The notes beneath the pieces were generated by a model, which had not been told where the DNA came from, did not search any database, and saw only the letters and a list, made by a program, of their open reading frames with translations. Of a stretch of DNA of 32,209 nucleotides, positions 2,269-32,209 are shown piece by piece. Position 1 is the stretch's first letter. Each line of letters starts with the position of its first letter. The stretch lies in NCBI RefSeq assembly GCF_019649055.1, contig NW_026570600.1, positions 1 through 32,209 of the forward strand, written 5' to 3'. The stretch is from Paramacrobiotus metropolitanus. Taxonomy: Eukaryota; Tardigrada; Eutardigrada; Parachela; Macrobiotidae. The position numbers and the translations under genes were made by a program.

Positions 2269-2376
2269 TTAAAACTTACTTAGAGTGCGGCCGAACTCAG
2301 TGGAGAGTTCTCTAGCTCCAATACTTTTCATTTTCACATCCACACAGGGATGAATGAAGAGAGTTCCGTAAGCAGT
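2269..2376 (-). CDS. Possible last exon of gene A
   Basis: After CTGCAG at 2,377-2,382 a phase-compatible frame reads TAYGTLFIHPCVDVKMK and ends FGRTLSKF at TAA 2,269. It sits where gene B has its last exon, but the residues do not align convincingly. A GTAAGT inside its last codons could instead be a donor leading to the frame at 2,160. ATTAAA follows the stop on the minus strand. Confidence 0.3.
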   Translation of the reverse strand, partial: TAYGTLFIHPCVDVKMKSIGARELSTEFGRTLSKF

Positions 2377-2483
2377 CTGCAGTTGTCCCTGACGAATGAG
2401 CATCGATACAGCTCAGTTTTTTTTTGCATATTTTGTTGTATTGATGGCCTTTGCCAAACAAAGCCATCACCAACAGCACCTAC

Positions 2484-3236
2484 ATGTAGCAGCAGGTGGA
2501 TATCATTGTGCGTAATGGAGTCAGCGATCCACTCAGACAAGACTGCCATATCCACCGATCGCTCCAGGACGAGATTCTCCTCAAACAGATCCCACAGAAG
2601 GATGCTCAGTTCCTCTTCGGGCTTACACTGGGCAGAGTACGCCGGCACAACCGCGCTCAAATTTTTATCCTTTAAACGACACTGGGACCACACTTGCTGC
2701 TCTGCAAGGTACGCAGCAGCCAGTGGATAGTCCCCCGAACATGGGCATTCATATCGCAGTAATCGTAGTAGAAGAACACCGGTGGAAGACCAGCGTCCCG
2801 ATGCTGTGGATCAGGTAGGCGACGAGATGAATCGCATTCACGCCTCTTTTAGGTTCAGGTGCGCGAGAACCAGCGTCTTGGTACGGTTGACAGCGCAGTG
2901 GAGGAGACAGTCCAGCATCCAGAATAAGGGCGGCACGCCGGATGACGGACAGTCCTCGCGGCGACCGGAGACCCGCACATCGGGGAAGTAGGCGTCTGTG
3001 GTGAGAAGAGCGTTCCATAGAGTGCAGGTGCGCCGGCAACGGGTGCGGTTGATGGTGTCCAGGGACTGGAAGACTTCCACTAACAACTCGCTGGGTAAGC
3101 GATGGAATGGTTTACAATTCGGCATAGTGTTGCGGTTGTTTATGTGTTTAGTAACCGGTTCCGGAGCCAGAACAAGCAGTCCGAGTGGGATATCGGAGAC
3201 ATCGTATTTCTTCTTCATCTGCGTGCAAAAGTCCTC
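2484..3236 (-). pseudogene. Gene A F-box exon
   Basis: Opens after TTTTGCAG with EDFCTQMKKKYDVSD. It reaches the F-box at LPSELLVEVFQSLD and continues RTRCRRTCTLWNALLTTD and FPDVRVSG, the diagnostic block of this family. After TLVLAHLNLKE the frame slips near 2,845, continues as IHLVAYLIHSIGTLVFHRC, slips again near 2,750, and resumes at WSQCRLKDKNLS through LWDLFEENLVL to the donor CAT|GTAGGT. Total length is 753 bp, a multiple of three despite two slips, so the indels compensate in sum. The F-box is expected to bind Skp1; the tail after it has leucine-rich periodicity and probably binds substrate. Confidence 0.7.
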
Positions 3237-4286
3237 CTGCAAAATCAGTTAAACGGTTACTGTGAGTCCACTTATGACATTTAAAAGAAAACATCCTCGC
3301 CGTGAAAAATAAAATATAGGAGAAATTCAAACAAACAGTCTCGAGACGATTTTGAAATGATTTGAAATGAAATCTGAAACATAAAAGCGAATTACTTGAT
3401 TATTTTATATTGAAACTTAATATCTTATTCCGTTTTTTAATTCTAAATATTATTTAGCCACATATTTGAAAATATTAATTTTTCAGAAATTTTGATTGCG
3501 TTTTGCAACGAAATTAACCTAAGGGCCTAAGCGCGAAAAATGACTCACTTATCGTGTCGTCAGGCTTAATGAACAACTGTGTCAAGCCCTAGTTAATCCA
3601 GCGATGTTTTGGACCGCAAAATATTGCAACGGCAACTTCTAAGCTGCCACTAGTGGAGTGGGTTAATCCACCCGTACCACGATAAAACGAGGTTTGATGG
3701 TTCGTCGGTGATGTTCCGAGTTAGCGAATTACCCAAAAGTCAGTTATGCAATTGCGAACATGTTAACCGATACCGGCGCGATTGTCAAAGTGCACAAACA
3801 TTTTTAATTAGCTGAAAAGTCATTGGGGAAGAGCAAGGGCAAGGCAAGAGCAAGAATGATTTCAGAACATTCAGACAATCTCAGAAGTCTAGAAAATCCA
3901 CGTTAGAACTGGTCGTTTCGTACAAGTACACATTCAGATGTTTCCGGTTGAACTAGCACCAATGAGATGTACATCTTCTCTACAGATCTCATTTGTACGG
4001 CTACAATATCATTTTTTACCGCATTTATTTCATTTTGGCGGTTTTCATGCACAAGGCCGAGTTGAATTGTGTAATAATTCGATTCCAAAGATGAAACGTT
4101 CTACAACGTCGAAAATTTCATTGTTTAATTACAAGTTATAATTTAGAGTTTCAAACGTTTATATCAGACAATTGCGCTGATTTTGATTCTGTAATCCGTT
4201 TGTAAGAAGAAAAGCTTGCGCCCGTAAATTAAAAAATTGCTGATATCCTTACGAAGGCCCTGATTACAATCCTAGATAAAACATAC
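3237..4286 (-). other. Intron 1 of gene A
   Basis: Bounded by GTATGT (4,286) and TTTTGCAG (3,237). It matches in length and position the 1.0-kb intron 1 of genes C, D and F. No exon, repeat or RNA gene is evident inside it. Confidence 0.5.
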
Positions 4287-4391
4287 CAGTCCATGAGGTT
4301 GCAGCCTCGATCTGCTCCACGCTGCAAATACACGAACGTTTCGCTCAGCACCGATGCACAACACGGGCCGCTCTCGATACAAAGCTGATAG
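4287..4391 (-). pseudogene. Gene A exon 1, 3' part, beyond the retrotransposon
   Basis: The minus strand reads SALYRERPVLC and then, after a frame slip, ASVLSETFVYLQRG. This aligns with YELDRLFQVLC plus FRYLQ of gene F and with TSMLSQTFSYLQRR of gene C. It therefore continues the exon broken off at about 7,539. A donor, CTG|GTATGT, follows at 4,287/4,286 at the place where gene C has GTG|GTAAGA. This short piece is the main proof that the element at 4.4-7.5 kb landed inside coding sequence and not in an intron. Confidence 0.6.
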
Positions 4392-4560
4392 ACGGCTGGC
4401 TGGCTGGCGGGCTAAATTTAGCTCTGTCTAGCCAGCAGTAGTTCCTTCGTTCTTTTATTTTCAAACTATCGTAAAACAACTTTTTTGGTACCGAAATGAT
4501 CCTTAAATTTTCTGTATCTTCTAAATGTAAGGTTGTGTGAATACAGTTAATACTGCAGCC

Positions 4561-7432
4561 ATGCGGGCCAAAAAATCGTCTCCGCTAGGAACTGTTGTTT
4601 ACCATCATTTAAATGTTCAACGCCTGAATAATGAGAAAACCGATGTGCTGCAGCAAATTCTGTCTTGTGACGATAATTTAGTTAAAATTTTCTGTTTAAC
4701 TGAAACCCATTTGTCCGAGAATGATCCCTCTCAGTTGTATGAAGTTCCAAATTATACGTTAATTAGAAAGGATCGCTCTCCAAACTATCGTAAGCGCAGT
4801 GGTGGTGGCATTCTTGTTTACCTTCCCTCCCATATTCCTTATTCCATTGTTGATGTATCCTCGGAAAATGCGGATGTGGAAAGTTTGTGGTTGTCCGTCC
4901 GAGTGGGTAAAAAAGAAGTTTTGCTAGGAACAATTTATCGGGCTCCTGACACCAACGCACACAACACGGAAAGTTTATTTGATCACATCCGCGAAGTTCT
5001 CTGTAAGTTTCCTAGCAGTGACTATGTGATTACAGGGGATTTGAATATTAACACCAATGACGTGAGTTCCCCGTTCCATCGCTATTATTCTGATCTGTGC
5101 AGTGAATTTGATCTCAGTGACATGGTTGTTGGAAATACTCGTATCTCCAGTCGTCGTAATAAGTCGAAAAATTCGTCCTATTTTACTTGTTCAAAAATTG
5201 ACGTGATGTTGTGCCATCCATCAACAAATTACAGCAGCAGCCTTGCCAAAGACATCGATATTTCAGACCACCGATTATGCAGAACCGTTGCGAGCTACAA
5301 GTGTGTTGTCCCCCGCCACAAGACGATATCGTATCGCCTATGGAAGCATACCTCCGAAGCAGATTTTGCAGCAAAGTTGAAATGCTTTTCCATGCGGGAT
5401 GAATTTCAGGATGAGAACGTGGATGTGAATACGCAGGTGGCAAATTTTGTTCGTGGCGTCTCCGACTTAATCGATGAATGTTTCCCAGTACGTACGAAGC
5501 GAGTGAAGCAGAGCGAAGCGCCTTGGATAACACAGAGCATTCGTACCGCTATCCGAGAAAAGAACGAAGCATATCAGCGACGATGTGCGGCCAGAAATAC
5601 AACTGAATATCCCATGTTCCACCGGGAGTTTTGCAGACTGCGGAGCGAGGTGCGATACCTGATCGGAGTGGCAAAGCAACGCTATTTTACTGAAAATCAA
5701 AGAAAAACTTCCGTGTTATGGAGAGAAGTGGGAAGAATGTTGCGGAAAACAAAAGATCATGTTGATTGCGAAGTTCCGCTTGACACGCTAAACCAGCATT
5801 TTGCTGCGATGGGACAGCACGGATTCCTGCATGCCGCACTAGCGCCTCTCGTCGGGGGCGACGGAATTAACAGTTTGTTTTGTAGGTTCAGCACTGTCAA
5901 ACCAGACGTGATAATGTCAATACTGCAGCAAATGAAAGAGAAAAAGAGCATCGGGACCGCTTGGAGTACCAGCTGGTCTACTCGGTGGGATCTCGTCAAT
6001 CCTTGTCCCTCCGTTGACCCACATGGTAAACAAGTCGCTACGTACGGGTGTCTTTCCTTCGGTGTTCAAATGTGCGGACGTTTATCCGCTTCCAAAAGTG
6101 GCCAACGCCCGATGTGCGGACGATTTCCGACCGATATCATTGCTATGCAATATATCTAAAGTCTTCGAGCGATGCGTACAGATCCAGTTGCATGACTTCC
6201 TGCAGGCGAATAATACATTGTCACCCAGACAATCAGGCTTTCGGAAAGGCCACTCATGCGAAACGCTGCTAACGAAAGTGACAGATGCGTGGGTACAAGC
6301 AATGGATCAGGGAGATGTCACCGCGGTTGCATTCCTCGACTTAAAAAAAGCGTTCGATTCGGTCAATCACGAACGGCTATTGGTCAAGTTAAAAGAAAAT
6401 GGTGTTAGCGGCCAAGCTCTAAACTGGTTTTATTCTTATCTGACCGGCCGCCGGCAGCGCGTAAACACGCAGAAATACTTTTCCGATTGGCTACCTGTAA
6501 TTTCCGGCGTTCCGCAAGGCACAGTACTGGGCCCGTTGCTCTTTATCTTGTACATCAACGACTTGCTGCTACACCGGAATTTCGAGATAGAAGCATTCGC
6601 GGATGATACCATTGCTCACTGCCGTGCGAAAACAGAGCAGCAGCTGCTAAGAAGCTCAATGATGCGCTGGAGACGGCAGCTAAGTGGTTCGAAGAAAACA
6701 GACTGGCAGTGAATGTGAAAAAGTGTGCGGCCATGTTTATTTGCACCGAACAGAAGTACCGGAAAGAAATCGACCCGCCGGTGACGTTGAACGGTCAGAC
6801 ATTGACTATAAAGCAGCATACAACGTACTTGAGCGTCGAAGTGGACCGCAACCTGAAATGGACTAAACAGTATGTGAAAGTGAAGCGAAACATCAACTAC
6901 GGCATTAAAAAGATCAAGCGTGTACAGTCCGGGCTCAGCATCCCCCAGCGAGTCACCCTTCACCACGCTTTTGTCCAGCCATACATAGATTACTGTGCAC
7001 TGGCCTGGTCAGCAGCGTCTTTGGGAGAGCGGGAGAAGTTGATGAAGCGACAGCACGCCGCCCTACGGACCATCACCGATGATGGTTCGGGTAACACCGC
7101 AACTGTACGAGCAGCTGGGCATAGTTCCAGCAGTCGAGCGATGGCGCCAGAAGAAAGCAGTGTGGCTGTACAAGATCCGAAACCGCGACAGTTTTGACGT
7201 GCCAGCATACATGTGTGACCTTGTTCCATTCAAGGACATTAGCCTGAGGTATGACTTCCGCCGGAAAGAACGTCTGGATATACCTGCGGCAAAGCTACGA
7301 ATTGGAAAGACAACCCTTGCGATGAGGCTGAAAGATTTGTTTGACAAAGTAGTGGGAAGCGGAAATCAGTTGTTTGGTTGTGGATCTGTTAAGACTTTCC
7401 TGTTCTTGTTGAAATCAAAAAATTTCTTGTAG
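4561..7432 (+). pseudogene. ORF2: endonuclease-reverse transcriptase of the non-LTR element, three frameshifts
   Basis: The endonuclease comes first: N in LNVQRLNNE, E in CLTETHL, GTIYRAP, then D and N in ITGDLNIN, and the closing SDHRLC. A linker is followed by the RT: FRPISLLCNISKVFE, the GFRKGHSCETLL block, AFLDLKKAFDSVNHE, GVPQGTVLGPLL and the catalytic AFADDT near 6,594-6,610. The thumb and C-terminal part carry QPYIDYCALAW and LPQLYEQLG-like RVTPQLYEQLG. The frame shifts near 5,960, near 6,645 and near 7,080. The likely first ATG is at 4,561 (MRAKKSSP), although an open frame extends slightly upstream. Catalytic residues are intact, so decay is recent or the shifts are sequence errors. 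By family, the protein nicks target DNA and primes cDNA synthesis from the element RNA. Confidence 0.85.
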
Positions 7433-7538
7433 TTCTTAATTTTTCTGTTTTGTCCAAGTATTGTACTGACCAGACCAGAAAGTGCCTCGAGGGTTTGTCT
7501 GCTCAATGAATAAACTAAACTAAACTAAACTAAACTAA
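7433..7538 (+). other. 3' UTR and microsatellite tail of the non-LTR element
   Basis: After the stop comes GACCAGACCAGAAAGTGCC, then TCGAGGGTTTGTCTG, which can fold with CAGAC pairing GTCTG around a CCTCGAGG core, then CTCAATGAA and (TAAAC)n. The truncated copy at 27.8 kb has the matching sequence. The stem-loop next to the tail is a likely recognition site for the element's own reverse transcriptase. Confidence 0.6.
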
Positions 7539-8057
7539 GAATACTCTCACGTATCGCAGGCGACGCCCTGATCCAGGCTGTCGGCAGGACAACCACGGAC
7601 CACAAAATCAATTTACCACCGCAGCGTCGAGCAAACTCATCCGGGTAAGCGCACTTGCTCCTTGGGCAGCAGCTCGTTGACGCCACCCGACGGGCAACTG
7701 CGCCTCGACGATGTACACACTGGCTAGATCTCTTAGGTCGCCGAGAAACGTCGCCGTTCCCGGGTACCATCTCCAGGGACCCTCCGGACCGGCCCGCAAA
7801 TATGCCTGCACATCACGTCCCACGTATGGGCCCCGAAAAGGGTTCGAGATTTCATCCGGGTCGTGCGAATGGAAGATGTTGGCGATTCCGTAGGCGACGA
7901 ACTGGGAGCGTACGGCAGCACATCCGAAATCAACGATCAGGCCCTTCTCCACCACGTTGATTACCTTACCGCGCTGCAGGAGGCCGTCGACCTGGACATC
8001 TACGGCGTTCCACGCGTAGATCGAGGGAAACTGTTCGTCCTTTTCGTAAACATACAT
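7539..8057 (-). pseudogene. Gene A exon 1, 5' part (N-terminal domain)
   Basis: Encodes YAWNAVDVQVDGLLQRGK, then IVDFGC and QFVAYG, then AYLRAGPEGPWRWYPGTA and VYIVEAQLPVG, all matching the N-terminal domain of the cluster. The frame slips near 7,685, just where paralogs read RELLP, and again near 7,650. The remainder, ending LPTAWIRASPAIRESIL, matches LPTAFWSESSPALREIF of gene F. It stops at the retroelement's 3' tail (TAAAC repeats). The internal residues share features of both subtypes: YAWNAVDV as in C/D/F, LLQRGKVINV as in B/E. Confidence 0.7.
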
Positions 8058-9212: not shown

Positions 9213-10899
9213 TCAGTTAACGCACTTCCATGTCAGAAAAGCGAACAAGGCCACGGCGGTGATCAAGGTCAGGTTGTATACGTCGACACGGGGAATGCTT
9301 CTTTTCCCAATCACGCTTCCGATAGTGCGTTGAACAGCGGGGATCCGTACTCTGGAATGTGTTAGTGTCTAAACAACAAGGAATACCATGAAAAATAAAA
9401 AAACTCCTAACATATTTACTTGGTAGCAAGCAAACAGAGAGCAATCGATTTACCGGCAGAAGCTGGGGAAACGGATTATACTTGATGGAATTGGCGATCC
9501 GCGCCGCCAACCGCGCCAGATTGACCGGTTCCTTCACAACGAGATGCGTTTCAAAGAGATCCCACAGCTGCATCTCCAGTTCTTCGTTTGAGTGGCCGGG
9601 AAGAACGTACTGCGGCACAACAGCCTTCAGATGCTGCACCGTGATGCGACAACGCATCCACACCACCATCTCCGCAGTGTCGCAGATGTGCATGAGGCAC
9701 CGCATGGTCTCCCCATCTGCCAGCCTGTGTAATGCAGCGAACAGTTGTGCAGCACCAGCGTCCCGATGCTACCGTATCGGCCGACCACGTAGCGCACAAC
9801 AGCGGCCGCATCAGCGCATTCGCTCATATGCATGTTCGTCAGAACGACGAGCTTGGTGCTGCTGTTGACGAAGCGCAGAAGGCAGGCCAGCGCCCAGAAC
9901 ATGGACGGCATGCTGAACGACGCTGAGTCCCCGCGGCGCCCGGAAACGCGCACATTGGGGAAGTGGGTGTCCGTGAGAATCGTGTTCCACAAAGCGCAGA
10001 TGCGCCGGCAACGGGTGCGAGTGACGCTGTCTAGCGAATGGAAGACTTCCACTAGCAGTTCGCTGGGTATGGATTGGAACAATTTCTGACCGCCAATGGC
10101 CATCCATTTCTTCACTGCCTCTTCTTCCTGAAAAAAAAACGGTTGATCACAGATTCAGTCGCCCATCATCGTGTGTATCAGTCTCAACGTTGAAATATTT
10201 ATCCCGACGTACCAGTTTATACTGTGGCAGTGCACGGGTGCAGTCCGGTTTCAGGTTTAGGAGCGTAGCGATGTGTTGCTTCAAGGTGAACCATTTCATT
10301 GTCTGCAACAAAAAGATTATCAGTTATTGGCAGACATCGAGCGGCCGATGGGACCCGCCGGATCAGGCGACCCGCATTTTGCAGTCACGGAGGCTTTTTT
10401 TGACAGTCGCGTCAGTTAATTAAAGTTGCTTTTTAACTACCCTGGGGCGCACCGCGTAGGCCGCCATTTCGGCATCCTGGAGCTGTCGGCGCACCTGGTA
10501 CCTAGGCACCAGCTCCCTCGCGGTTCCTTGGGGCAGACAGGCCTCCACGATATACAAATTGGCCGAGTAATTTGCGCAGTAAGGGAACGATCCCCACGGT
10601 GCCACCACCAGCGCCGTTCCGGGATACCAGGTCCAAGGTCGGTGGAGGCCAGCTCGAAGAAGAACCTGCACTTCAGGTCGCACATCCGTATAATAGTGAC
10701 AAGAAGGCTTCCGCGCGTAAAACAGGCGTCCATATTCGACAAACTGCGAGCGCTGGTTTGTACAGCCAAAATCAACGATCAGGCCGTCATCCAGCACACT
10801 GATGGCCTTGCCGCGCTGCAGCCGGCCATCGACCAGGGCGTCAACGACGTTCGGCGGGTACTCGGCCTGCGACCCGTTGCCCGCATTGTACATTGACAT
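9213..10899 (-). CDS. Gene B: F-box protein, short subtype, with a hydrophobic C terminus
   Basis: Four exons on the minus strand: 10,899-10,441, 10,302-10,213, 10,127-9,454 and 9,368-9,213, all with GT...AG borders. The start is the ATG of MSMYNAGNG, which aligns with gene E; ATG 10,917 is upstream of the conserved part. Exon 1 (153 codons) is the cluster's N-terminal domain, with VVDALVDGRLQRGKAISV, WTWYPGTALV and YIVEACLPQG. Exon 2 encodes a 30-residue basic linker (TMKWFTLKQHIATLLN). Exon 3 has the F-box LPSELLVEVFHSLDSV and a leucine-rich tail ending LWDLFETHLVVKEPVNLARL. Exon 4 ends VYNLTLITAVALFAFLTW, a possible membrane segment. One base is missing after GGCTGG near 9,720 compared with gene E, breaking exon 3 (674 bp instead of 675). 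It is either a recent pseudogene or an assembly error. Likely role by family: substrate receptor of an SCF ligase. Confidence 0.7.
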
Positions 10900-12403: not shown

Positions 12404-12497
12404 TTTTTGTGTTTCTTTCTTTATTTTGCGTTAACTTTGATTTGACCAATAAAGTTTCAAAAATTTGTAGAAAAAAACATAAACTGTCGATCTGAGA

Positions 12498-15154
12498 TTA
12501 AAACTGAGCAACTACATCGATGTTTTCGCTTAAGACGGCCGCTGTCAGGGCGGTCAGCTTGTCAGCATCCAAGCCAGCGACTGTGGACATGGTCCACTGC
12601 TGGTTGCGGTACTCGGTGGTCGGCCGCGGATCCACACTCTGGTAGTTAACAAGCGCCTGCAATCATTCGCACAACTGATTAAGAAACCACTCAACGGCGC
12701 AATTCTTTCTACAGTCTACACTCACGTATTCAATAACGCCGGTTCGTTCGCGAGCGGTGCACTCGGCAATCCATTTCGCTAAAGCAGACCCACCAACCCG
12801 CTTCGGGTGAACCAGATTGTTCTCCAAGAGATCCCACAACTTCACCTGCATCGCCTCTTTGAGGGGAACGACAAACTCATGGTGCATAACTGTTGCGTTC
12901 AAAGTACGATCGAAGAGCCAGCACTTCTTCCACACCACTCTTTCGCATATCGACGAGCACTTCCCCATAAGATCGGTGAGAAAGTCGACTACGCCCGTAA
13001 CCAAATCAGCACTATCGCCGAAATTGCACCCGTTCAGCGAAAGCACCGGTAATTGGTTGGTTTGCAGTTCCTTGATTAATTTGATCATTTTGTCGAACTG
13101 CTCCAGATCCAGATGCACGAGCGTAATGACCTTCGTGGTGCTGCTGTAGCATTTCAGCAAGCAAGCCGTCGACCAGTAAATGCCCTCGTCGCAGAAATCC
13201 GGCTTCCCGTAATCCACATCGCTGCCGGAAATCCAGACGTGGGGAAAGTTAGTGTCCGTCGTGAGCAACGTGTTCCACAGGGGACAGACACACCGACAGC
13301 GGATCCGTTCGATGGAGTCCAATGACTGGAAGATCTCCACTAACAGCTCCGTCGGAAGATGCAGTTTCGCATCGGTTGATTCGATGACTTCCGTATCATC
13401 CAGTTTTCTCTTTTTGCTGGGTTCAGTGTTCGGTGCATGACGGAGCATCCAATGCGATATCCTGGGTAGGTAGCTCCGATCTTCGTCCATCTCCGCCTCG
13501 CAGTATGCCTTTTCCTACAGGAAGTAACACTAATATGTTATCACCCGTGAATGTATTTTTTCAGAGTGTTTCGCCATCTGTTAATATAAGTATATAACTG
13601 AACTTTAATTTTTCGAACAGGAAATAGCCATCAGTATTTGAAAAGAATTTTAAAGTTAATTTATTCAAATCGAACAATTCGAGAAAATTTACTGAAAAAC
13701 ATGATAAATTATTTGTGAATTCTATTTTTTTATGCTGTTAATGCTGTTTTTAAATAAATATATAAGCCTATAGTTGTGTGGAGGTCGAAAAGACCTGCGA
13801 CAGCATCTCTTTCGAACTTTTTTTAGGAGATCGGGTATGGTGACAAAACTAAAACTTTTCTGCTGATTTAAAGCAGCGAGAAAAAATAAGGATACATACA
13901 AAGGACATACCAAAAATAAAATTTCCTTACTTTGTGTCTCCCATCACACATGCCTTTAGGCCTAATTATCCATACAGATACAAAAGCCCTTCAGTTCACT
14001 ATTTGATGTAAACGCTTTCAATTTACCGTTGAAAACTGGACAGGGGCGAAAGTAATACAAGAATGAAAGGGTTTTAGAAGTCCGTGGAAAAACTGAAAAG
14101 GTGGTACAAGCCATTTATTTCTCCTGCCTCCGTTTTCATCGAGCCATTTGATTCTAATTTTCCTGAGTAGTTTACATGATTGCTTAAGTAACAAAAATAT
14201 ATCAGTTTATTACTTCAGATGGCAGGTGCTTACTTTTGGTACGTGCAATTACGAAAAATGGGAAACATTCTTTTGGTACGTTCTTTGAACTTCTTTCCAC
14301 TTCAGCAGCATATTTTTAGGGCTGCCCCCCCACCCTCCGCACAGGTTTTTAGGGCTGCCCCCACGCACAACCATTTAACTGTGCGCTCCAAATTCTTGCC
14401 GCGTAAAACTTTTTTGGCATTTAAAAAAAAGTAAAAGCTCTACTGTGATTAAGGTCTAAAGGCGAACTGAAACTGGCCTTCTAATTCTAGGAGACAATGA
14501 GATTAGGATGCACATTACACGCACAGCTTGAGCTTTCTTACCACTTGCTCCGCATTCAGGGGGTTTCAGTCCGACGTTGCAGATAGCTAAATGTCTGGCT
14601 GAGCATCGAGGTGCACAACACTCTGTACAGTCGGTCGAGTTCGTATTTGAAGATCTCCCGGAATGAGGGGTCTCCTCCGACCACAATTCGCCGGGCATGG
14701 GACAATCGCGGATAACAAAGTCGGTCTGCCCCACGCGACGCTCTTCCAAGACCGCGTTCGTGGGCGCAAGGCGCACTTGTTGCCAGGGCAGCAGCTCCCT
14801 GACGGTTCCGTACGGGCGCTGAATATCGACCAGTTCAACATTGTTGGAGGTGAAAGACCCCAAGGAGACGAGCGCCCCTGGATACCAGATCCAGGCGCCG
14901 TCGGAATGGCGCCGCAGAACGACCTGCGCGGGCTGCTCCCCCCAGGGCCAGAAATTCTGACGGTTGTTGCAGTGGAAGATGAGCCCGTATTTGACGAACT
15001 GCGCGCGTTTTGTGGGACATTTAAAATCGATGATCAGGCCGCCCTCCGTCATGTTGATCACGTCCCCGTGCTGCAGCTGGCCGTCAACCAGAACGTCCAC
15101 GGCGTTCCAGGCGTATACCGCGTGGTTTTGATCGTCGAAGCTGTAAGACAGCAT
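12498..15154 (-). CDS. Gene C: F-box protein, long subtype
   Basis: Three exons: 15,154-14,542, 13,514-12,726 and 12,656-12,498, with donors GTG|GTAAGA and TAC|GTGAGT and acceptors CTGTAG and TTGCAG, all phase 0. The intact product would be about 521 residues. Residues 1-205 are the N-terminal domain (YAWNAVDVLVDGQLQHGD, GLIIDFKCPTKRAQFVKYG, WIWYPGALV, RPYGTVRELLPWQQVRL). The F-box (LPTELLVEIFQSLDSIER...CPLWNTLLTTD) falls near residues 250-297. A leucine-rich tail follows, and the last 52 residues form a conserved block, YQSVDPRP...EYRNQQWTMS. Exon 1 is two bases short of 615; both losses map to C-runs (near 14,668 and 14,561), so they may be sequencing errors. Exons 2 and 3 are fully open. 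It shares its upstream region with the BTB-Kelch gene at 15,776. Family role: SCF substrate receptor, probably cytosolic or nuclear. Confidence 0.8.
13515..14541 (-). other. Intron 1 of gene C
   Basis: A 1.03-kb intron between GTAAGA and CTGTAG. It is AT-rich and includes a direct repeat of TTTTTAGGGCTGCCCCC (14,314 and 14,346) and a short plus-strand frame at 14,219 that I do not accept as a gene. Confidence 0.6.
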
Positions 15155-15775
15155 CGCGCAGTGCGAGCTTGCTAATAAACAGTATGCTTCGAAGGATCAA
15201 ACAGCTGAGCAGTATTCGACGACTGACGAGCAGTGCAATAAAATTTTGGCTGACAATCGTCCGACGAGCAATTAGAAAGAAGTCGAAATAGAAGCTGGAA
15301 CCTAGTCCTCATGTAATAAAACTTGAAAAATACAAAACCAACAAACGATATCCCGGTTCATTGCAGAGAAGTTGCAACCACATTCCAAATTTTCGCAGGT
15401 AACCGTCGCTCCGAGCTTTAGAGACTAACTCAACAAAGTCGCAACGCTAACCGCCCATAGAGGGTGCCGTCGTCCAGATCAGATGAGAAGTGTGTGTATG
15501 GCTTATGCTATTGCTGACACAAGCCTCGTAGAAATGATAGAATTCAAATCTTTCATTAAATCAAATAAGTTCGTGGTGGCAGCGTTTTTTTCCCGTGAGG
15601 CTTGTTTTTCTAAATTTGCTGTCGACCGATACTGACGTGAGTTTATTCATGTGTGAGGCTTGTTCGAATGCCAGTGCTCAGTGCTCACAAAGTCACATGC
15701 TCACATTCTTCACACCTGATCTTCGTTTCTTTCTTAAGGTGCCAGTGGCCGTACCACATACTGGGTTGAACAGAT
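15155..15775. promoter_or_regulatory. Shared upstream region of gene C and BTB-Kelch gene 1
   Basis: 621 bp separate two divergent start codons. Two blocks recur upstream of genes D and F: CGCAGGTAACCGTCGCT (15,395-15,411), and GTCGCAAC followed by TAACCGCCCA and AGAGGG (15,438-15,464). A third, looser block near 15,560-15,625 (TTTTTCTAAATTTGCTGTCGACC) also recurs next to D. Conservation against diverged flanks suggests promoter or enhancer elements serving both genes. No TATA box is obvious. Confidence 0.6.
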
Positions 15776-18700
15776 ATGGCTGGTTGTGCGAGACGCAGTT
15801 CACCGCCAGCTCGCAAACGCAGGCGACTCTTCGAGGACGCAACCCCGCTCCGGCTTGACGGGTCGGAATTCTTCCGCGGGCTGCAAGATGCCCGTCACAA
15901 CTTCTGCGATGTGTCGGTGCGGGGCGCGGATGATCCAACCCAATCTGAATCTCAGTGGATTCCCTGCCATCGCATCGTGCTAATGGCACACAGCCTCTGG
16001 TTCCGACGCATGCTGCTCGCGCCCATGAAGGAGGCCAAACAGGACACCATCCAACTGCACAACGTTCCCCACGATATCCTGCAACAGTGAGTGTACCTAG
16101 AGCGTTCTCATTTTCGCTGTTTGTTTAGCGAATGTTGTTTATGCGTTGCAGATTGGTCGATTACATGTACTCTTGCGAGATCTCCGTGGACGCCAGCAAT
16201 GCGCTCCTTTTGCTCCAAGCAGCGGACATGCTGGAACTGGGACAGATCGTGGAAACGTGCCAGACATTTTTACGGGAGCACATCGACGTAACCAACTGCC
16301 TGACGATCTACCGTGGGGCGCAGCAACTCTCCTGCGCCGATCTAACGAAGGAGTGCCACGACTTCTTGCTGGAGCACTTTCCTAGCTTCTGCCACTCGAT
16401 GGAGTTTCTCGAACTGGACGCTGTCGAAGTATGCTGGGCTGTTTCGAATTGTTAATTATAAATAACGGGGTTGAAAATATTAAGTAGTTTTATTCTGCAG
16501 ATTAGTAAGCTGATCGCCTCGGACGAGCTGAACGTGGAGAAGGAAGAGCAGGTGGTCGCGGCGGTTGTGCGGTGGCTGGATCATTCCTTCGAAGAGCGCC
16601 AATCGCATGCAGCTGAGCTGGCGGGACTCATTCGTTTAGATCTGCTGGCAGCGAATCATGCTTCCCTTCCTGACACGCCCGCTGGGAATCATTTTCAGCA
16701 GGCTATCCTGTCCATCTCCGCACCCCACAGCACATCCACACTACGCAGCTCCTATGGAAGAGGTAAGTACGTTTTCCTTTGCATAGTGATGGGCCCAGTG
16801 TTGTAATGAATTTCAAATACTTTAGCCATTATTTTAGAATTTGTCAAAAATGTTGCAACCTTGGTTCGGTGTAAAAACATTCTGCATGGTGATGTGTTCT
16901 TCCTTGCAAAATTGGTTGATAGGTTGATAAAGTGGATTGGTTGATAATGAGACCTTTGATACACCCCGTGCATTTAAAATTTTAAATGCACTTAAATTTT
17001 ATTATTTATTTTTAATAATTAATTATTAATTATTTTTAATAATTATTTTTTATTAAATGCACTTTAAATTTTATTAATTTTATTACGATTAAGTGCATTT
17101 AAAATTTTATTTCACCCATAACCCCCCAACCGGATGCTGCTTGCACAATTGCATCGTATACAATTTTTTTGGCTATGTGATGTCAAAAACAATGTGATGT
17201 CAAGCGAAAAATATCACTTACCTTCAGAAATTCCTTCCCTTGAAAGTTTTTTTTTATTTTTATGTGAAATGTAATGCTTTTTACACATTCTTTTGCGTGA
17301 AAAGCGAAATTTTTGATTTAATACGCATCACAGCAGATAGCCATTTTCTGGCTAGGGTGTCAATCTATAGAATCTTGCAGCATGGCTGGGAAAAATAAAC
17401 AATAAAATCAAACTTTAAGAAACGAGCAGATGTTAAACCGGGTGCAGTCGTACTCCGACAGCAGCCTTTTACAATAATATTATTCGAAATCGAAGTTTTC
17501 TGGTTGGCTTTCTCGTTCCAGAGCCGGTAATTATTTCCCTTCGCTGTTCGACGCAAGGATTCGGAAACCGTAGGCGTCTTGTTGCTGTGTTGCACTGCTT
17601 GGCTCCGTTAACCTCCAACAACTGGAGCCTTCCGTGTGAGCCTCCCCAGAGCCGATGGCATGGTTTCCCGGTGTATGTAGTGAAAAATGGGCGCCTTCTC
17701 GTCTACGTTCTGACGGAGGCGGGTAGCGACGAGTGCCGGCACCTTCACGTGTACGATGCCACCGCGAACCAGTGGACGGACCTAGCGGTGCTTCCGGTTC
17801 GCGATCACATGAAACATATAGCGTCGCCGGTCGTCGTCAGGGACCAGGTGTACGTCGTGACTGCCGACCGGGTGTACGCGTACGAAGAGGGCTTCAGCAG
17901 ATGATCCCCAGAGCGCACAGACCTCGGGTGGCTTGGAGCAGCACGCTAGTGCCGTGCGGGAGCCGGCTCTTCGTGTTTGGGGGCTGCGCTAATTATCCGT
18001 GCCGAGGCGGTGAAGGAGACCTACAAACGCCGGGCTGAGAGTCGCGTTCGTCTATGATCCGGCACGCGACCAATGGGAGAAACTAGCGCCGATGCCGACA
18101 GCACGCGCGGATGCTGCAGCATGCGTGGGCCCCGATGGACTCATCTATGTGGCAGGTCAGTACAAGCCTGTGGACAAATTGAGCACATTGAAAGGTCTGG
18201 GCTAGGCTCGCACAGACTTGCAAAAAATCTGCCGATTGAGGGAATCGAACCCACAACCTCTTTACTCTAAGGCCGAGAGGCACATTAGGATATCGGCAAA
18301 GCATACAAAATGTATCGAAATGTTCTATCGAACGATCCTATAGAGAGCGGATGCCGCTCTGACAATATAAAGATACAGGTAGAACGAAATGAGCGTGCAA
18401 CGTGACTGTGCATAACTCATCTTCCAACTGACTATCATGTTCGGTATCAAATCCGTAGGCGGTTCCCCCGATAACGTGAACCCAAAGTTGACCTGTGTGG
18501 AAGCGTACAACCTGCGAACGAACCAGTGGAAGCTGAAACGTGAGTGTACCGTACGCTGCTCTTGGGTGGAGCCCACACTGTTAATGCGTTGACGGATATA
18601 TAATAAGCATTTTAATTAGGAGACATGAATATTGCCAAAGAAGTGCACATCGGCCTGGTGCCGGTAAAGACCGTCTGTACGCTATTGGTGATCCGGCGAT

Positions 18701-18853
18701 GGAGACCTACGATCCGCCACCGACACCTGGTCGTTGTGCGAAGCGGCGCTGCAGTCGTTTTCCTGGTCCGCCTGCAGCGTGGTGCCGCGGCGTTTTGTGT
18801 GGATGAGGATGCCGAGGGCGGAATCGCCGGATACGGACGGCTCTGGCCACTGA
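15776..18853 (+). CDS. BTB-BACK-Kelch gene 1 (Cul3 adaptor type), Kelch part frameshifted
   Basis: Six exons can be traced: 15,776-16,086, 16,152-16,428, 16,501-16,762, 17,522-18,155, 18,459-18,539 and 18,620 to about 18,853. Start ATG: MAGCARRSSPPARKRRR, a basic leader. BTB domain, residues about 35-150: HNFCDVSVRGADD, CHRIVLMAHSLWFRRML, LVDYMYSCEISVDASN, LLQAADMLELGQIV. BACK domain follows (ASDELNVEKEEQVVAAVVRW, GLIRLDLL). Kelch repeats: HVYDATANQWTDLAVLPV, SRLFVFGG, FVYDPARDQWEKLAPMPT, LIYVAGG, AYNLRTNQWKLK, RLYAIG and TYDP. Exons 1-3 are fully open. In the Kelch part the frame slips near 17,905, 18,030, 18,665 and 18,725, and the gene runs into a MITE-like repeat. By family it bridges Cul3 (BTB/BACK) to a substrate held by the Kelch propeller. 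It may be a pseudogene, or carry assembly errors. Confidence 0.8.
16763..17521 (+). other. Intron 3 of BTB-Kelch gene 1, with AT-rich palindromes
   Basis: Bounded by GTAAGT and TTCCAG. Between 16,968 and 17,116 it contains a 24-bp perfect palindrome with half-site GTGCATTTAAAA, and two further copies of the TGCACTTTAAATTTTATT / GTGCATTTAAAATTTTAT motif around 17,053 and 17,093, separated by TTAATAATTA-rich sequence. The structure could be a decayed foldback element. Confidence 0.6.
18230..18298 (-). repeat. tRNA-like element 1, in an intron of BTB-Kelch gene 1
   Basis: On the minus strand, TGCCGAT at the 5' end pairs fully with ATCGGCA at the 3' end over 69 nt. The B-box GGGTTCGATTCC is canonical and T-runs follow the 3' end (GATTTTTT). 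The D and anticodon arms do not fold cleanly, so I call it a tRNA-derived SINE head or tRNA pseudogene and assign no anticodon. Confidence 0.5.
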
Positions 18854-20154: not shown

Positions 20155-21162
20155 TTATCCAGGTTTATCGATGCCTTCGCTCAGGACGGCCGCTGTCAGT
20201 GCTGTCAGCTTGTTGACATCGACACCTGCTATGGTGGACATGGTCCACTGCTGGTTGCGGTACTCCGTCGCCGGCCGCGGATCCACGCTCTGGTAATTAT
20301 CAAGCACCTACAAAAGATATGCACAACTAATTCAGAAACTATTAAACGGCGAACGGCTGCTCTCAACACTCACGTTTTCAATAACGCCGGTTCGCTTGCG
20401 AGCGATGCACTCGGCAATCCATTCCGTTAATGCAGATCGATTAACCAGCTTCGGGAAGACAAGATTGTTCTCGAAGAGATCCCACAGCTGCAGCTTCATC
20501 ACCTCTTTGGGTGGAATGACGAACACGTGGTGCATCACCCTTGCTTGCACATTGCGATCCAAGAGCCAGCACTTTTTCCACACCACTCGTTCGCAAATCG
20601 ACGAGCACTTCACCATGAGATCGGCGATATCGCTAACAACACCCTCAATAAAATCAGCTTCATCCCCGAAATTGCATCCGTAGAGTGAAAGCATCGATAA
20701 GCGGGTGGTTTGGAGTTCCTTGATTAATTTGATCACTTTGTCGAACTGCTCCAGGTCCAGATGCACGAGCGTAATGATCTTCGTGGTGCTGCTGTAGCAT
20801 TTCAGCAAGCAAGCCGTCGACCAGTAAATGCCCTCGTCGCAGAAATCCGGCTTCCCGTAATCCGCATCGCTGCCTGAAATCCAGACGTGGGGAAAGTTAG
20901 TGTCCGTCGTGAGTAGCGTGTTCCACAGGGCACAGACACGTCGACAGTGGACGCGTTCGATGGAGTCCAACGACTGGACGATCTCCACTAACAGCTCACT
21001 CGGGAGATGCAGTTTCGCACTGGCTGATTCGATGACTTCCGTGTCATCTACTTTTCTCTTTTTACAGGGACCGGTGATGAAGATATCACGGAGCATCCAG
21101 TGCGACATGCAGGGTAAGTAGCTCCGGTCTTCGTCATTCTCCGCCTGGCAGTACGCCTTTTC

Positions 21163-22207
21163 CTGCAATTCAAACAGTTAAACACTACAGAGTAGTTTGC
21201 TCTCCCGCGCCCGTGAACTTATTTTCATAGAGATTCAACATTTATTGATAAACTATACTGCGACCTGAGGGCTTCTATATAGCAAATCTGACCTCTGGAT
21301 AATTTCAGCGCATTTTTCTGACTGCTCCGTTCACCCTCAAATCACTTGGGCGGTTGCAATGACGCCACTACTAAACCTTATATTTTTTGTTGTCAGGCCG
21401 CCTGTTTCTGCTGTCGGCTAAGGCTGTGGAATTACTTAATACATCTTTATTATGATGGAAAAATTGTGACTTTTGAATACCGCCAATTATTAAAAATTTT
21501 TTTTGCTTTTTATAAACTCCAGGACTTATCGCCGATTCTTAACATGTTGTCAGAAAAATTGTATTAGTATCCTAAAGGAAGACCCTTAAAAGTTTTTAAA
21601 TTTTTTGAATAATTCTTCCCAAATTCTGCTTTTATCCAAAGATTTTCTTTTCTTCGACTGAAACAATTTTTCTGACAACACATTCAAAATCAGCGATATC
21701 GATTCACCTAGAAGAGGCGTTTATAATGCAAAACAAAAAGCTACATTTTTGTTAGTGGCGCCATTGCAGCCGCACAGGGTACTGCAATTGGGTCTAAGCA
21801 GGGCGCAATCCGAGGGAATCCGAGAAACGGCTGAAAAAGGCGCCGATGGGGAATCGAACCCGGCGTCGTTAGATCCACGTAGGCAGTCCACTGCGCCACG
21901 GCGCAATGCGTTGAAATCCTTTGAAAGATTTCGCTGCGTAATCCGCTTCTCGCTTCACATATCAAAAGATATCAAAACTGCTCATATAAAATAGCGAGAA
22001 AAATGAAAAATATGGTAAATGCTTGTTTGCGTAGCAGTTTTTAGGGCGCCCAGGAAATCAACCAAGTGCTACAAATTTTTGGTGAGAATATTTGCCAGTA
22101 ATAAAAATGATTAAAGGTTTCGACCGAGTGATTGTGGTTTCTAAAGTACTAAAATCCTAATCGTAAGCGGTAAGACAAACAAGATGCACAAAACATGTAA
22201 CACCTAC
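21163..22207 (-). other. Intron 1 of gene D
   Basis: About 1.05 kb, bounded by GTAGGT and TTGCAG. It contains the tRNA-like element at 21,839-21,905 and otherwise AT-rich sequence with no exon signal. Confidence 0.6.
21839..21905 (-). repeat. tRNA-like element 2, in intron 1 of gene D
   Basis: The minus strand starts TGCGCCGTGGCGCAGTGGA, with a good A-box (TGGCGCAGTGGA), and has a canonical B-box GGGTTCGATTCC. The ends pair GCGCCG with CGGCGC, and TTTTT follows as a Pol III-type terminator. The T stem is imperfect and the anticodon arm does not fold normally. This is the best promoter-like match of the tRNA-like units, but I cannot assign an isotype. Confidence 0.5.
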
Positions 22208-22825
22208 CACTTGTTCCGTGGTCAGGGCGGCAGTCCGGCGCTGCAGATAGCGAAATGTCTGACTGAGCAGCGAGGTACACAACACTTTGTAAAGTTGGTG
22301 GAGCTCGTATTTGAAGACCTCCCGGAACGACGGGGACTCCTCCGACAACAATTCGCTTATTTCGCTAGGCAGGGGACAATCGCGGATAACAAAGTCGTAA
22401 TGCCCACGCGACGCTCTTCCAAGATCGCGTTCGAGGGGGGAAGGCGCACCTGTTGCCAGGGCAGCAGCTCCCTAACAGTTCCGTAGGGGCGCTGAATATC
22501 CACTACTTCAACGTTTTGGGAGGTGAAGAATCCCAGGAGACGAGCGCCCTGGATACCAGATCCAGGCGCCGTCGGAATAACGACAGTAGGACCTGTGCGG
22601 GCTGCTCTCCCCATGGCCAGAAATTCTGACGGTTGTTGCAGTGGAAGATGAGCCCGTATTTGACAAACTGCGTTCGTTTTGCGGGACATTGGAAATCGAT
22701 GGTCAGGGCCTCCCTCCGCCACGTCGATGACGTCGCCGTGCTGTAGCTGGCCGTCGACAAGGACGTCCACCGCGTTCCAGGCGTACACAAGAGTGTTCTC
22801 TATCGTCCCAGCTGTAAGACAGCAT

Positions 22826-23340
22826 CGCGCGAGCTTGCAAAATTCTAAACAAAACAGTATGCAACTGTATGCTTCGAAGGATCACGCTAACTGAGCAAAT
22901 CTTTTTATCCAACGAGCAATGAAAAGTCGATGAGACACGGCTGGAACCTTGTCTTACCCTAGTGTAATAAAACTTGGAAAATTATAAAATCAACTACTGT
23001 AGCAAATCTTGGTTCATTGACGTGGGAAGTTGTAACCACATTCCAAATTTTCGCAAGTAAGTACAGTAACCGTCACTCTGATTTTAGAGACTAACTTTAC
23101 GACGTCGCAACACTAACCGCCCAGAGAGGGTGCCGCTTGAAGATCAGATGAGCACTGTGCATCGTGTATGCCATATTACTGATACAAGCCTGTAGAACGA
23201 AAGAAATTATGCCTAGATTACTGTACGAGTACAGTGTACAGATATACTCCGTATAATGTAAAACTCAATAACTAAAATAATTTCCTGGTGACAGCCTTTT
23301 CATACCGTGCGGATTCTTTTCTAAATTGGTTGTCAACTGG
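22826..23340. promoter_or_regulatory. Upstream region of gene D: remnant of the shared F-box/BTB promoter
   Basis: GTCGCAAC, TAACCGCCCA and AGAGGG recur at 23,104-23,130, and GTAACCGTCACT lies near 23,068. The block TTTTCTAAATTGGTTGTCAACTG (about 23,310-23,340) matches the region just before BTB-Kelch gene 1. Similarity then stops and no BTB coding sequence follows, so the duplicated segment ended here or the partner was lost. Confidence 0.55.
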
Positions 23341-24060: not shown

Positions 24061-24151
24061 ACTTGTTTTGACAGATTGCTTTAATTCGAGTTGCATCTTT
24101 ATTAATAATCGCACAAGTTCTGGTAATAAAGAAAGAAATACGCTATCTTAT

Positions 24152-24696: not shown

Positions 24697-26378
24697 CTAA
24701 CTTGTCAACGCGCTTCTGACAACGCTTCTGACTTCTGACAACTTGTTAAGTATCTATACAAAATCAAGACAATCCAAACACAGCTACCAATAGCAAACAA
24801 GTAGACAACATTCCAGTTACCGGCAGAAGCTGAGGAAATGGATTGTACTTCATCGAGTTGGATCCGCGCCGACAAGCGTGCCAGATTGACCGGTTCCTCC
24901 ACAACGAGATGCGTTTCGAAGAGATCCCACAGCTGCTTTTCCAGTTCCTTGTAAGACTGGTGGCAGGTGAACGAGTATTTCAGCAAGACGACGTTCACAT
25001 GGTGCACCGTGATGCGACACTGTGTCCACACAACCTTCTCCGCAGTGTAGCACATGTGCCGCAAGCAGCTCACGATGTCCGCCTTATTCCAGCCGTCGTA
25101 ATGCAACAAACAACGGCGAAACACCAGCGTCGCGACGCGACCATCACGGCCGAGCACGTGGCGTACGATGGCGGCCGCATCGGCGCATTCACCCATATTC
25201 ATGTCTGCCAGAACGACGAGCTTGGTGCTGCTGTTAACGAAGCGCAGCAGGCAGGCCAGCTCCCAGAACGTGGACGGCATACCGCAGGAAACCGAGCCCT
25301 CCGGGTGGCCAGAGACCCGCACATCGGGGAAGTCGGTCTCCGTGAGGATCGTGTTCCACAACGCGCAAGTGCGCCGGCAACGGGTGCGACTGACGCTGTC
25401 CAGCACCAGGAACACTTCCGCTAACAACTCACAGGGTATGGATTGAAAGAGTTTCCGACCGCCAATGTTCATCCATTTCTTCAATGGATCGTTTTCCTGG
25501 AAAATCGTTTATTTGTTGGGCGATGTATGAGCAGTGATTGCTATAGCAAAAAATGGGTGGGTCCAGAAACCCACACCGGCAACCGCTGCTTAAAAAAGCG
25601 ACCCGGCTTTAGAAATGAACCGAAATGAATGCCAGCTTGGCGATTCGGCGACAAGCAGCTCGATTATTCTCAACGTACCAGTTTATTCTGTGGTAGTGCA
25701 AGGCCTCCGTGCTGCGCATTGAGGAGCGTGTCGATGTGCTGCTTCATGGCAAACCACTTAATTGTCTGCCAAAGAAGAAGAGTTATAAAATAAGTAGCGT
25801 CAATCGGCCGGTTAGGCCGGCCAGATTAGGCGGCCGGCACGGACAGCCACAAATAACTGGTTTTACAGACGTCATTTTGATTCGACGGTTATGCAGATGT
25901 CTTTATAAATGTTTCTTCCTTACCCTCGGCCGCACAGCGTAGCCGGCCAATTCGGCGTCGGGGATCGATCGGCGGACTTGATACTTAGGCAACAGCTCCC
26001 TGACCACGCCATGGGGCAGCAACACCTCCACGATATACACATTGCCCCAGTAGCTTTTGCGCCGAAGGGACTTCCCTCGGGGACTCAACGCCAGCACCGT
26101 TGCGGAATACCATGTCCAGGGGCTCTCGGGGCCAGCTCGTAGGAGAACCTGTACATCAGGTCTCCGACCGTATTGCCAAACAAAGGTCTCCACGGATGAA
26201 ACAACCGCCCGTACTCGACGAACAGTGAGCGCTGGTCCGCACAGCCAAAATCAACGAGCAGACCGTTCTCCAAGGCACTGATGGCCTTGCCGCGCTGCAG
26301 GCGGCCGTCGACGAGGGCGTCAACGGCGTCCGGTGCATACAGCGCCTCCGACCCCTTATGCGCTTCGTACACTAACAT
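24697..26378 (-). CDS. Gene E: F-box protein, short subtype (frameshifted)
   Basis: Exons 26,378-25,924, 25,765-25,679, 25,496-24,821 and perhaps 24,753-24,697. Borders include AGG|GTAAGG, CTG|GTACGT and CCG|GTAACT. Start MLVYEAHKG. Exon 1 carries DAVDALVDGRLQRGKAIS, LLVDFGCADQRSLFVEYG, VQVLLRAGPESPWTWY and YIVEVLLPHGVVRELLP. It is 455 bp where 456 is expected, with a frame slip near 26,170. Exon 2 is the 29-residue linker TIKWFAMKQHIDTLLN. Exon 3 holds the F-box IPCELLAEVFLVLDSVSR, CALWNTILTETDFPDVRVSG and a leucine-rich tail to LWDLFETHLVVEEPVNL; the frame slips again near 24,858 compared with gene B. The last exon (19 codons) lacks the hydrophobic end seen in B and abuts retroelement sequence, so the original tail may be lost. 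Pseudogene or assembly error. Family role as for gene B. Confidence 0.65.
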
Positions 26379-31135: not shown

Positions 31136-31780
31136 CGCGCAGTGCTAGCGTATTAATGAACTGGAATGTCAGAACGTGGATGGATTATCCTCGCATCCAG
31201 CTGCGTAAAGCGAAACGAGCAACGCACAAAATAATAAACATGATTGACAAAATGTTTTCGCGACAGATGATAAGATGAGGCAGTCACAATAATCAGATAG
31301 GAAGTTAGGAAATGGAATCTGCAGCAAGAAATAAATTTTCTAAAGCAACCTGCAACAGAACTAAAAAAAACCAAACAAATGATCTCGTTTATAGTTTATA
31401 GTTTATTGCAATTTGCAACTGCAACTAAATTTTCGCAGGTAACCGTCGCTGTCAGCTTAGTGTCCAAGTCTTGGTTGTCGCAACATTAACCGCCCACAGA
31501 GGGGCAGACTGCCCGACCAGCTGTATCCTGTGTGTTTCCTTTGCTTCTGCTGAACAAGCCTCGAGAAACTAGGCCTGTGCAGATCCCTCGTTAATTTAAA
31601 TTAAAACAGATTTTTGTCGCAATAGGGTTCTTATCGAGTGGCTAAATTTGGTCGACTGGAAAGTATCGTTTGTGAACATTCTTCGAATCGAACTTATCTA
31701 AGTGCTGGCGGCTGAATCGGTCTGATTATCAATTTATCACTTTTCTTAGGCGCTGCCACATAGTGCGTTCGGAGATCATC
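31136..31780. promoter_or_regulatory. Shared upstream region of gene F and BTB-Kelch gene 2
   Basis: 645 bp between divergent ATGs. CGCAGGTAACCGTCGCT recurs exactly at about 31,435-31,451, and GTCGCAAC, TAACCGCCCA and AGAGGG at 31,477-31,503, in the same order and spacing as upstream of gene C. The rest has diverged strongly, so these blocks are likely functional promoter elements. Confidence 0.6.
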
Positions 31781-32209
31781 ATGGCAGATGGTGTCACATG
31801 CAGTTCTCCGCCTGCTCGCAAACGAATGCGGATCTCTGAAGAGGCAACTCCCATTAAGCTTCATGGGTCGGAATTTCTTCGCGAACTGAATGAGGCCCGT
31901 CACAACTTCTGCGATGTGTCAGTGCGAGGCGCAGATGATCCGTCAGCCCGAAGTGCCGTGGATTTCCTGCCATCGCATCGTGTTGATGGCAAGAGTGGTT
32001 GGTTCCGACGCATGCTGCTCGCGCCATGAAGGAGGCCAAACAGGACTACATCCAACTGCATAACGTTCCCCATGATATCCTACAACAGTGAGTGTACCTA
32101 CAGAGCTCTATAGGGTTCTAATTTTCGCTGTCTGTGTAGCGAATGTTTGATGTTGTTTGTGCGTTGTAGATTGGTCGATTACATGTACTCTTGTGAGATC
32201 TCCGTGAAC
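31781..32209 (+). CDS. BTB-Kelch gene 2, 5' end (partial, runs off the window)
   Basis: Exon 1 is 31,781-32,087 and exon 2 begins at 32,170 (after GTTGTAG), with the same CAACA|GTGAGT donor as gene 1. Start MADGVTCSSPPARKRMR, then EEATPIKLHGSEFLREL and ARHNFCDVSVRGADDP, the start of the BTB domain. The frame breaks near 31,950 and 31,998 and again at 32,024, where gene 1 has CCCATGAAG and this copy has CCATGAAG. It continues LQLHN-like as IQLHNVPHDILQ and LVDYMYSCEIS. Expected role is that of a Cul3 substrate adaptor. Whether the three slips are real cannot be told here. Confidence 0.7.

What the first reader, a model, noticed from the sequence alone, without database searches (positions are those of the whole stretch)
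12498..18853. Head-to-head module: an F-box gene and a BTB-Kelch gene share one promoter region
Gene C and BTB-Kelch 1 diverge from a 621-bp region, and gene F and BTB-Kelch 2 diverge from a 645-bp region, with the same two conserved blocks in each. F-box proteins serve Cul1 ligases and BTB-Kelch proteins serve Cul3 ligases, so two different ligase systems appear to be co-expressed and co-duplicated as a unit. I know of no described module of this kind. Co-regulation is inference from layout.
Basis: partly seen in the sequence, partly recalled or inferred. Interest (0 to 1): 0.7.

Follow-up and report, generated by a model that had tools for sequence, protein, structure and literature searches.

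The report
Decaying tandem F-box/BTB-Kelch gene cluster
A stretch of an unnamed animal-like genome carries six repeated copies of an F-box gene, two of which sit back to back with a BTB-Kelch gene; the pairing looks like one old neighbourhood that was copied and is partly falling apart, not a proven shared-control unit.

Summary
The layout is real. Gene C (-) and BTB-Kelch K1 (+) start 621 bp apart, gene F and K2 645 bp apart, and the gaps share a ~165-bp block. C, D and F have significant F-boxes; K1 is BTB-BACK-Kelch. A 'module' is not supported. Only 2 of 6 F-box units in the window are paired. D, the closest copy of C, keeps the block but has no BTB gene; its homology to C stops ~150 bp before the K1 start. 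All six F-box units lie on one strand, so any opposite-strand neighbour is head-to-head with one of them. K1/K2 exon 1 and the C/F 5' exon differ alike (18.8%, 19.0%; the C/F F-box part 32.5%), which fits one ancestral pair copied once. As sequenced, C, D, F, K1 and K2 carry frameshifts although substitutions look protein-conserving (dN/dS 0.17-0.41): recent decay or assembly errors. The exon upstream of the F-box folds, at low confidence, like FMRP/FXR tandem Tudor domains. No host genome is held, so enrichment and expression could not be tested.

The parts
12498..12656 (-). gene C, last exon (ends ..ENIDVVAQF, stop at 12498-12500)
   Evidence: splice acceptor and homology to D and F
12726..13514 (-). 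gene C, F-box exon; open reading frame
   Evidence: Pfam F-box E 1.4e-9; indels among C/D/F in this exon are all 3 nt
14542..15154 (-). gene C, 5' exon; tandem-Tudor-like domain; two frameshifts near 14670 and 14560
   Evidence: fold match to FMRP/FXR tandem Tudor
15155..15775 (.). 621-bp gap between C and K1
15369..15534 (.). conserved block shared with D and F upstream regions
   Evidence: blastn C-F E 2.5e-17; nhmmer finds three places below E 0.9
15739..15775 (+). possible 5' UTR part of K1 behind a splice-acceptor-like TTTCTTAAG (inferred, by eye)
   Evidence: not visible in the global alignment
15776..18853 (+). BTB-Kelch K1: BTB (exons 1-2), BACK (exon 3), Kelch exons in changing frames
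   Evidence: Pfam BTB 1.1e-19, BACK 2.9e-25, Kelch_1 4.6e-15 on the late piece; PDB KLHL3 2.8e-31
20155..22825 (-). unit D: F-box gene closest to C; 5' exon with five or six frameshifting indels; no BTB partner
23023..23203 (.). the same conserved block upstream of D
   Evidence: nhmmer E 1.5e-52 with a profile that includes it; blastn C-D E 6.3e-44 over the larger region
28528..31135 (-). gene F: F-box exon open; 5' exon with one frameshift near 31107 and no GT at the homologous donor
31136..31780 (.). 645-bp gap between F and K2; block at 31410-31568
31781..32209 (+). BTB-Kelch K2, cut by the window end; exon 1 with indels of 2, 1 and 1 nt against K1
2334..8057 (-). unit A, unpaired (rough limits); LINE between its exons
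9430..10899 (-). unit B, unpaired (rough 3' limit)
24705..26378 (-). unit E, unpaired (rough 3' limit)

Best explanation
This is a tandem array of a lineage-specific F-box gene family (tandem-Tudor-like 5' exon + F-box exon + short last exon) turning over by gene birth and death. One ancestral member, the forebear of C, D and F, had a BTB-BACK-Kelch gene on its 5' side. Local duplication copied that neighbourhood; C and F inherited the BTB-Kelch neighbour, while D ends, or was cut, about 150 bp short of it. The head-to-head pair is therefore one inherited arrangement, seen twice. The shared block is most simply a control element or 5' untranslated part of the F-box subfamily; whether it also drives K1/K2 is open. 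Family biochemistry (recalled, established knowledge) would make the F-box product a receptor of an SCF (Cul1) ligase and K1 an adaptor of a Cul3 ligase, acting independently. Shown: layout, domains, homology limits, frameshifts as sequenced, selection pattern. Inferred: order of duplications, role of the block, protein functions, and that the copies are decaying rather than misread.
For: Six F-box units on one strand and two BTB-Kelch genes. C+D closest in 1000 of 1000 bootstraps in both segments; C-F 5' exon differs 19.0%, K1-K2 exon 1 18.8%. Block found upstream of C, D and F and not beside A, B or E; C-D homology reaches 15626/23337 and stops. Purifying selection in each exon compared, with both control frames higher. 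Frameshifts in C, D, F, K1 and K2. Mobile-element remains lie in the array.
Against: The block is more conserved between C and F than most of the rest of the gap, so something there is under constraint, possibly for both genes. The C-F F-box part differs by 32.5%, not 19%, so the match in divergence holds for one exon only. Substitutions on D's lineage are not relaxed (12 amino-acid changes against 10 on C's), which argues against long-dead copies. Only one window was seen; pairing elsewhere in the genome is unknown.
Confidence: 0.7

Rival explanations
1. A working bidirectional-promoter pair: the ~165-bp block drives both the F-box and the BTB-Kelch gene, the pair was kept through duplication because co-expression is useful, and the frameshifts are assembly indel errors.
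For: Block conserved above most of its surroundings in both gaps and far above shuffles; low dN/dS in C, F, K1 and K2 despite frameshifts; no relaxed rate on D's lineage; head-to-head pairs tend to be co-expressed (opening of the abstracts of PMC4089025 and PMC7817982 in the listing).
Against: D keeps the block with no BTB partner; 4 of 6 units unpaired; zero frameshifts in three F-box exons against eight in three 5' exons (P 0.0014 by length, 0.0026 by homopolymers, 0.014 by G/C homopolymers, a comparison chosen after seeing the data), which uniform sequencing error does not predict.
Confidence: 0.2
2. The block belongs to the BTB-Kelch gene alone, as a 5' untranslated exon or first-intron element: CAG|GTAACC in it looks like a donor, and TTTCTTAAG / CTTTTCTTAG before the start codons looks like the matching acceptor. 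D keeps it as a leftover of a lost BTB gene. This concerns the block only and can hold together with the best explanation's history.
For: By eye, C/F likeness resumes at the acceptor-like site just before both start codons.
Against: The global alignment does not show that likeness (identity 0.34-0.40 there), for which I lowered this rival from 0.15 to 0.1; C and D are close copies, so leftover and function cannot be told apart; the donor-like site in D is altered; no transcript data.
Confidence: 0.1
3. The F-box protein acts on its neighbour's product: either BTB-dimer quality control as by FBXL17, or a toxin-antidote-like pair as klmt-1/kss-1 in Caenorhabditis tropicalis.
For: FBXL17 binds BTB proteins including KEAP1 (PMC7729025 passages). 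Linked, rapidly evolving F-box antidotes degrade their partners through SCF (PMC12680543 passages).
Against: A profile of the F-box exons finds only the FBXL2 F-box in the PDB, not FBXL17; the partner is an ordinary BTB-Kelch gene; four of six F-box units have no partner; no interaction data.
Confidence: 0.04

Closest known systems
Lineage-specific F-box and BTB gene expansions by birth and death (nematodes, plants; passages of PMC4209131)
   Same: copies of ubiquitin-ligase receptor genes, broken members, copy-number turnover
   Different: a BTB-BACK-Kelch neighbour embedded in the F-box array; tandem-Tudor-like domain on the F-box gene
Head-to-head (divergently paired) genes, about 10% of genes (opening of the abstracts of PMC4089025 and PMC12672016; passages of the latter)
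   Same: start codons under 1 kb apart, opposite strands
   Different: no evidence of shared start region or co-expression; a single ancestral pair
klmt-1/kss-1 toxin-antidote elements (PMC12680543, passages only)
   Same: F-box gene tightly linked to an unrelated gene and duplicated with it
   Different: partner there is a tRNA-synthetase copy; here BTB-Kelch, with no sign of toxicity
SCF-FBXL17 BTB quality control (PMC7729025, passages only)
   Same: F-box protein and BTB protein
   Different: no sequence link of this F-box family to FBXL17 was found

Membership tests
F-box protein family | significant F-box domain | tested here: met
   best of Pfam F-box/F-box-like: C 1.4e-9, D 1.5e-7, F 1.5e-8, A 2.9e-9; E 1.9e-4, below the curated cut-off; B's F-box exon was not put to Pfam
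F-box protein family | binds Skp1/Cul1 | not testable with these tools
   needs experiment
BTB-BACK-Kelch (KLHL) family | BTB, BACK and Kelch domains in order | tested here: met
   K1, by in-frame pieces: BTB and BACK strong, the first two Kelch pieces weak (0.01 within the joined exons, 0.047), the third 4.6e-15; KLHL3 and KBTBD2 best in the PDB
BTB-BACK-Kelch (KLHL) family | one open coding sequence | tested here: not met
   K1 changes frame near 17900 and 18040, and by eye twice more after 18640; K2 has three indels in exon 1
Bidirectional-promoter gene pair | divergent starts within 1 kb | tested here: met
   621 and 645 bp between start codons; transcription starts unknown
Bidirectional-promoter gene pair | shared regulatory element and correlated expression | not testable with these tools
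   no RNA or start-site data; the block is also present without a partner
Tandem Tudor domains (FMRP/FXR type) | two Tudor barrels | tested here: inconclusive
   the ten best Foldseek hits are all FMRP/FXR for both models (best E 4.0e-4 and 7.0e-5), but mean pLDDT is 52 and 60, TM to the query 0.22-0.37, rmsd mostly 11-12, and no Pfam match in 5 of 5 rows
Toxin-antidote element | toxic partner neutralised by a linked gene | not testable with these tools
   only linkage seen
FBXL17-type BTB quality control | sequence similarity to FBXL17 | tested here: not met
   profile search of the PDB, which holds the FBXL17 complex 6WCQ (named in PMC7729025; its KEAP1 chain appears), found only 6o60 FBXL2 at E up to 0.1

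The most novel reading that the evidence does not exclude
A heritable two-ligase cassette: a Tudor-like F-box protein that controls, or is controlled by, the BTB-Kelch protein transcribed from the same 0.6-kb region, copied as a unit, with unpaired relatives being cassettes that lost their partner.
Probability: 0.05. Interest if true: 0.75.

Novelty: new member of a known kind. Interest (0 to 1): 0.3.

Why it matters
If a genome-wide survey showed repeated independent pairing, it would be the first case known to me of Cul1 and Cul3 receptor genes being inherited as one unit, and would point to cross-regulation between two ligase systems. As it stands it shows how tandem duplication alone can make an apparent module. 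The tandem-Tudor-like/F-box protein family is the more durable lead.

Tried and rejected
Genome-wide pairing test: no whole genome is held for this window. Relatives elsewhere: searches of genome contigs (2 of 2 scans) and viral contigs (3 of 8 scans) found no relative; these collections hold prokaryotes and viruses, so this says little. The organism was not identified; a tardigrade was suspected from memory only and is not claimed. Literature (10 of 10 searches): F-box + BTB-Kelch + head-to-head gave 0 papers; F-box + kelch + bidirectional promoter + Cul3 gave 0; a looser search listed 12 of 80, all 12 of them plant papers; Tudor domain with F-box and others listed 8 of 22, none on such a protein by title. 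The library is open-access only, so absence there is weak. tRNA and Rfam scans of the window: 0 hits. I rejected 'conserved blocks prove a shared promoter' because D keeps the block without a partner. I could not decide between real decay and assembly indel errors: the uneven spread of shifts favours real shifts (post hoc), the selection pattern favours errors or very recent decay. Limits of my own counts: C's F-box exon was aligned to itself, so its zero only restates an open frame; E was aligned to the distant C protein and its three events there are not counted, since E's own frame is open for 267 codons; A's events rest on weak alignments; the total of eight takes D as five shifts, while the gap list has six; K1 and K2 were left out of that comparison; the 5'-exon dN/dS includes a few last codons where the majority frame is lost. 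One query (C's 5' exon) was in the wrong frame and is not used.

Full report
Setting. The 32,209-base window is 46% G+C and carries introns and a LINE; no whole genome is held for it. It looks animal-like, but the species is not known to me.

Layout. Six F-box units lie on the minus strand (A to F), and two BTB-Kelch genes on the plus strand (K1 whole, K2 cut by the window end). The others are 1.3 to 2.1 kb with rough unit limits: A-B 1372, B-C 1598, K1-D 1301, D-E 1879, E-F 2146 (the last becomes 2149 with F's stop codon at 28528).

Gene make-up. In C, D and F the gene has a 5' exon, an F-box exon and a short last exon, with splice acceptors at matching places. Pfam finds F-boxes in C, D, F and A above the curated cut-off and in E below it; B was not put to Pfam for this. 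K1 exons 1-3 hold BTB (1.1e-19) and BACK (2.9e-25); a later piece holds Kelch (4.6e-15), while two earlier Kelch pieces match weakly (E 0.01 within the joined exons, and 0.047). The best solved structures are KLHL3 and KBTBD2.

The 5' exon. No Pfam family matched in 5 of 5 rows scanned, D not being among them, and no PDB sequence at E below 0.8. Two AlphaFold2 models of low confidence (mean pLDDT 52 and 60), which share most of their input, both give as their ten best Foldseek matches the tandem Tudor domains of FMRP, FXR1 and FXR2 (best E 4.0e-4 and 7.0e-5). Agenet, DSIF/KOW, SGF29 and SETDB1 Tudor domains follow. TM-scores to the query are only 0.22-0.37 and rmsd mostly 11-12, so the relative placing of the two barrels is not trusted.

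The shared block. C-F: 15369-15534 with 31410-31568, 72.9% identity; 77 bits against at most 27.4 in 200 shuffled pairs. A three-row profile of C, D and F finds those three places in the window and nothing else below E 0.9; it was built from them, so only the absence beside A, B and E is informative. D has the block but no BTB gene: K1 pieces match significantly at K1 and K2 alone. C-D homology continues past the block to 15626/23337 and then ends.

History. C and D are closest in 1000 of 1000 bootstraps for both segments. F is the outer copy and has a BTB neighbour, so the forebear of C, D and F most simply had one, and D lost it or was copied short. K1-K2 exon 1 differs by 18.8% over 308 sites and the C-F 5' exon by 19.0% over 612, but the C-F F-box part by 32.5% over 992; dS is 0.62, 0.49 and 0.86. 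Rates differ along the gene and the dating is rough. Because all six units share a strand, a plus-strand neighbour is head-to-head with one of them whatever its history; only its orientation, a one-in-two matter, and one duplication need explaining (inference).

State of the genes. Frame-aware alignment puts 2 shifts in the 5' exon of C, 5 in D (6 in the gap list), 1 in F, 0 in B and 1 in E (first 128 residues only) and 4 in A (weak alignment). F lacks GT at the homologous 5'-exon donor. The F-box exons of C, D and F are open, and their indels are all of 3 nt; B's has one shift and A's three events. K2 exon 1 has indels of 2, 1 and 1 nt. K1's Kelch exon reads in three frames in turn, changing near 17900 and 18040, the middle piece being the weak one; two more changes after 18640 are by eye only.

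Selection. dN/dS: 5' exon 0.33 (F-C), 0.28 (F-D), 0.26 (C-D); F-box exon 0.40, 0.35, 0.41; last exon 0.21, 0.23, 0.17; BTB exon 0.20. The other two frames gave 0.77 to 2.56. With F as outgroup, amino-acid changes in the 5' exon are 10 on C and 12 on D (15 ambiguous, 189 codons compared); in the F-box exon 15 and 15 (46 ambiguous, 260 codons compared). So D is not relaxed although it has most shifts. Eight shifts in 1845 nt of 5' exon against none in 2355 nt of F-box exon has P 0.0014 by length, 0.0026 by homopolymers and 0.014 by G/C homopolymers, a comparison made after seeing the data and without K1 and K2. Recent decay and assembly error both remain open.

Literature. Head-to-head genes are common, about 10% of genes (opening of the abstracts of PMC4089025 and PMC12672016; passages of the latter). 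F-box and BTB families are known to expand and decay by birth and death (passages of PMC4209131). Linked F-box genes that degrade a partner's product are known from C. tropicalis (passages of PMC12680543), and FBXL17 acts on BTB proteins (passages of PMC7729025); both are analogies only. PMC12062965 (abstract and outline) shows F-box genes gaining extra domains from mobile elements. PMC5531438, on two tardigrade genomes, was searched for passages only: kelch and ubiquitin do not occur, and one BTB/POZ family is listed in a table. The Cul3-contact and Skp1-contact roles are recalled family knowledge.

Verdict.

Noticed in passing
14542-15154, 22208-22825, 30522-31135, 7546-8057, 10423-10899, 25972-26378: 5' exons of all six F-box units encode one related domain; no Pfam match in the five rows scanned (D not scanned), and the predicted fold of F's and C's resembles FMRP/FXR tandem Tudor domains. 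A tandem-Tudor-like/F-box protein family may be undescribed.
   Followed up: yes
4531-7432: LINE with endonuclease and reverse transcriptase, in several frames, lying between the exons of unit A.
   Followed up: partly
11894-12425 and 24125-24670: Inverted copies 69% alike in the B-C and D-E spacers; they recall the C-terminal part of a retroelement protein (from memory); the parts scanned have no Pfam match.
   Followed up: partly
27865-28265: Reading frames that resemble by eye the LINE 3' end at 7046-7432, in the E-F spacer; no Pfam match.
   Followed up: partly
15715-15775 and 31727-31780: Acceptor-like pyrimidine tract and AG just before both BTB-Kelch start codons: possible 5' untranslated intron.
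   Followed up: partly
16975-17109: A+T-rich self-complementary stretch in the long K1 intron.
   Followed up: no
30505-30540: Gene F lacks the GT donor present at the homologous place in C and D; a GC donor is possible.
   Followed up: no
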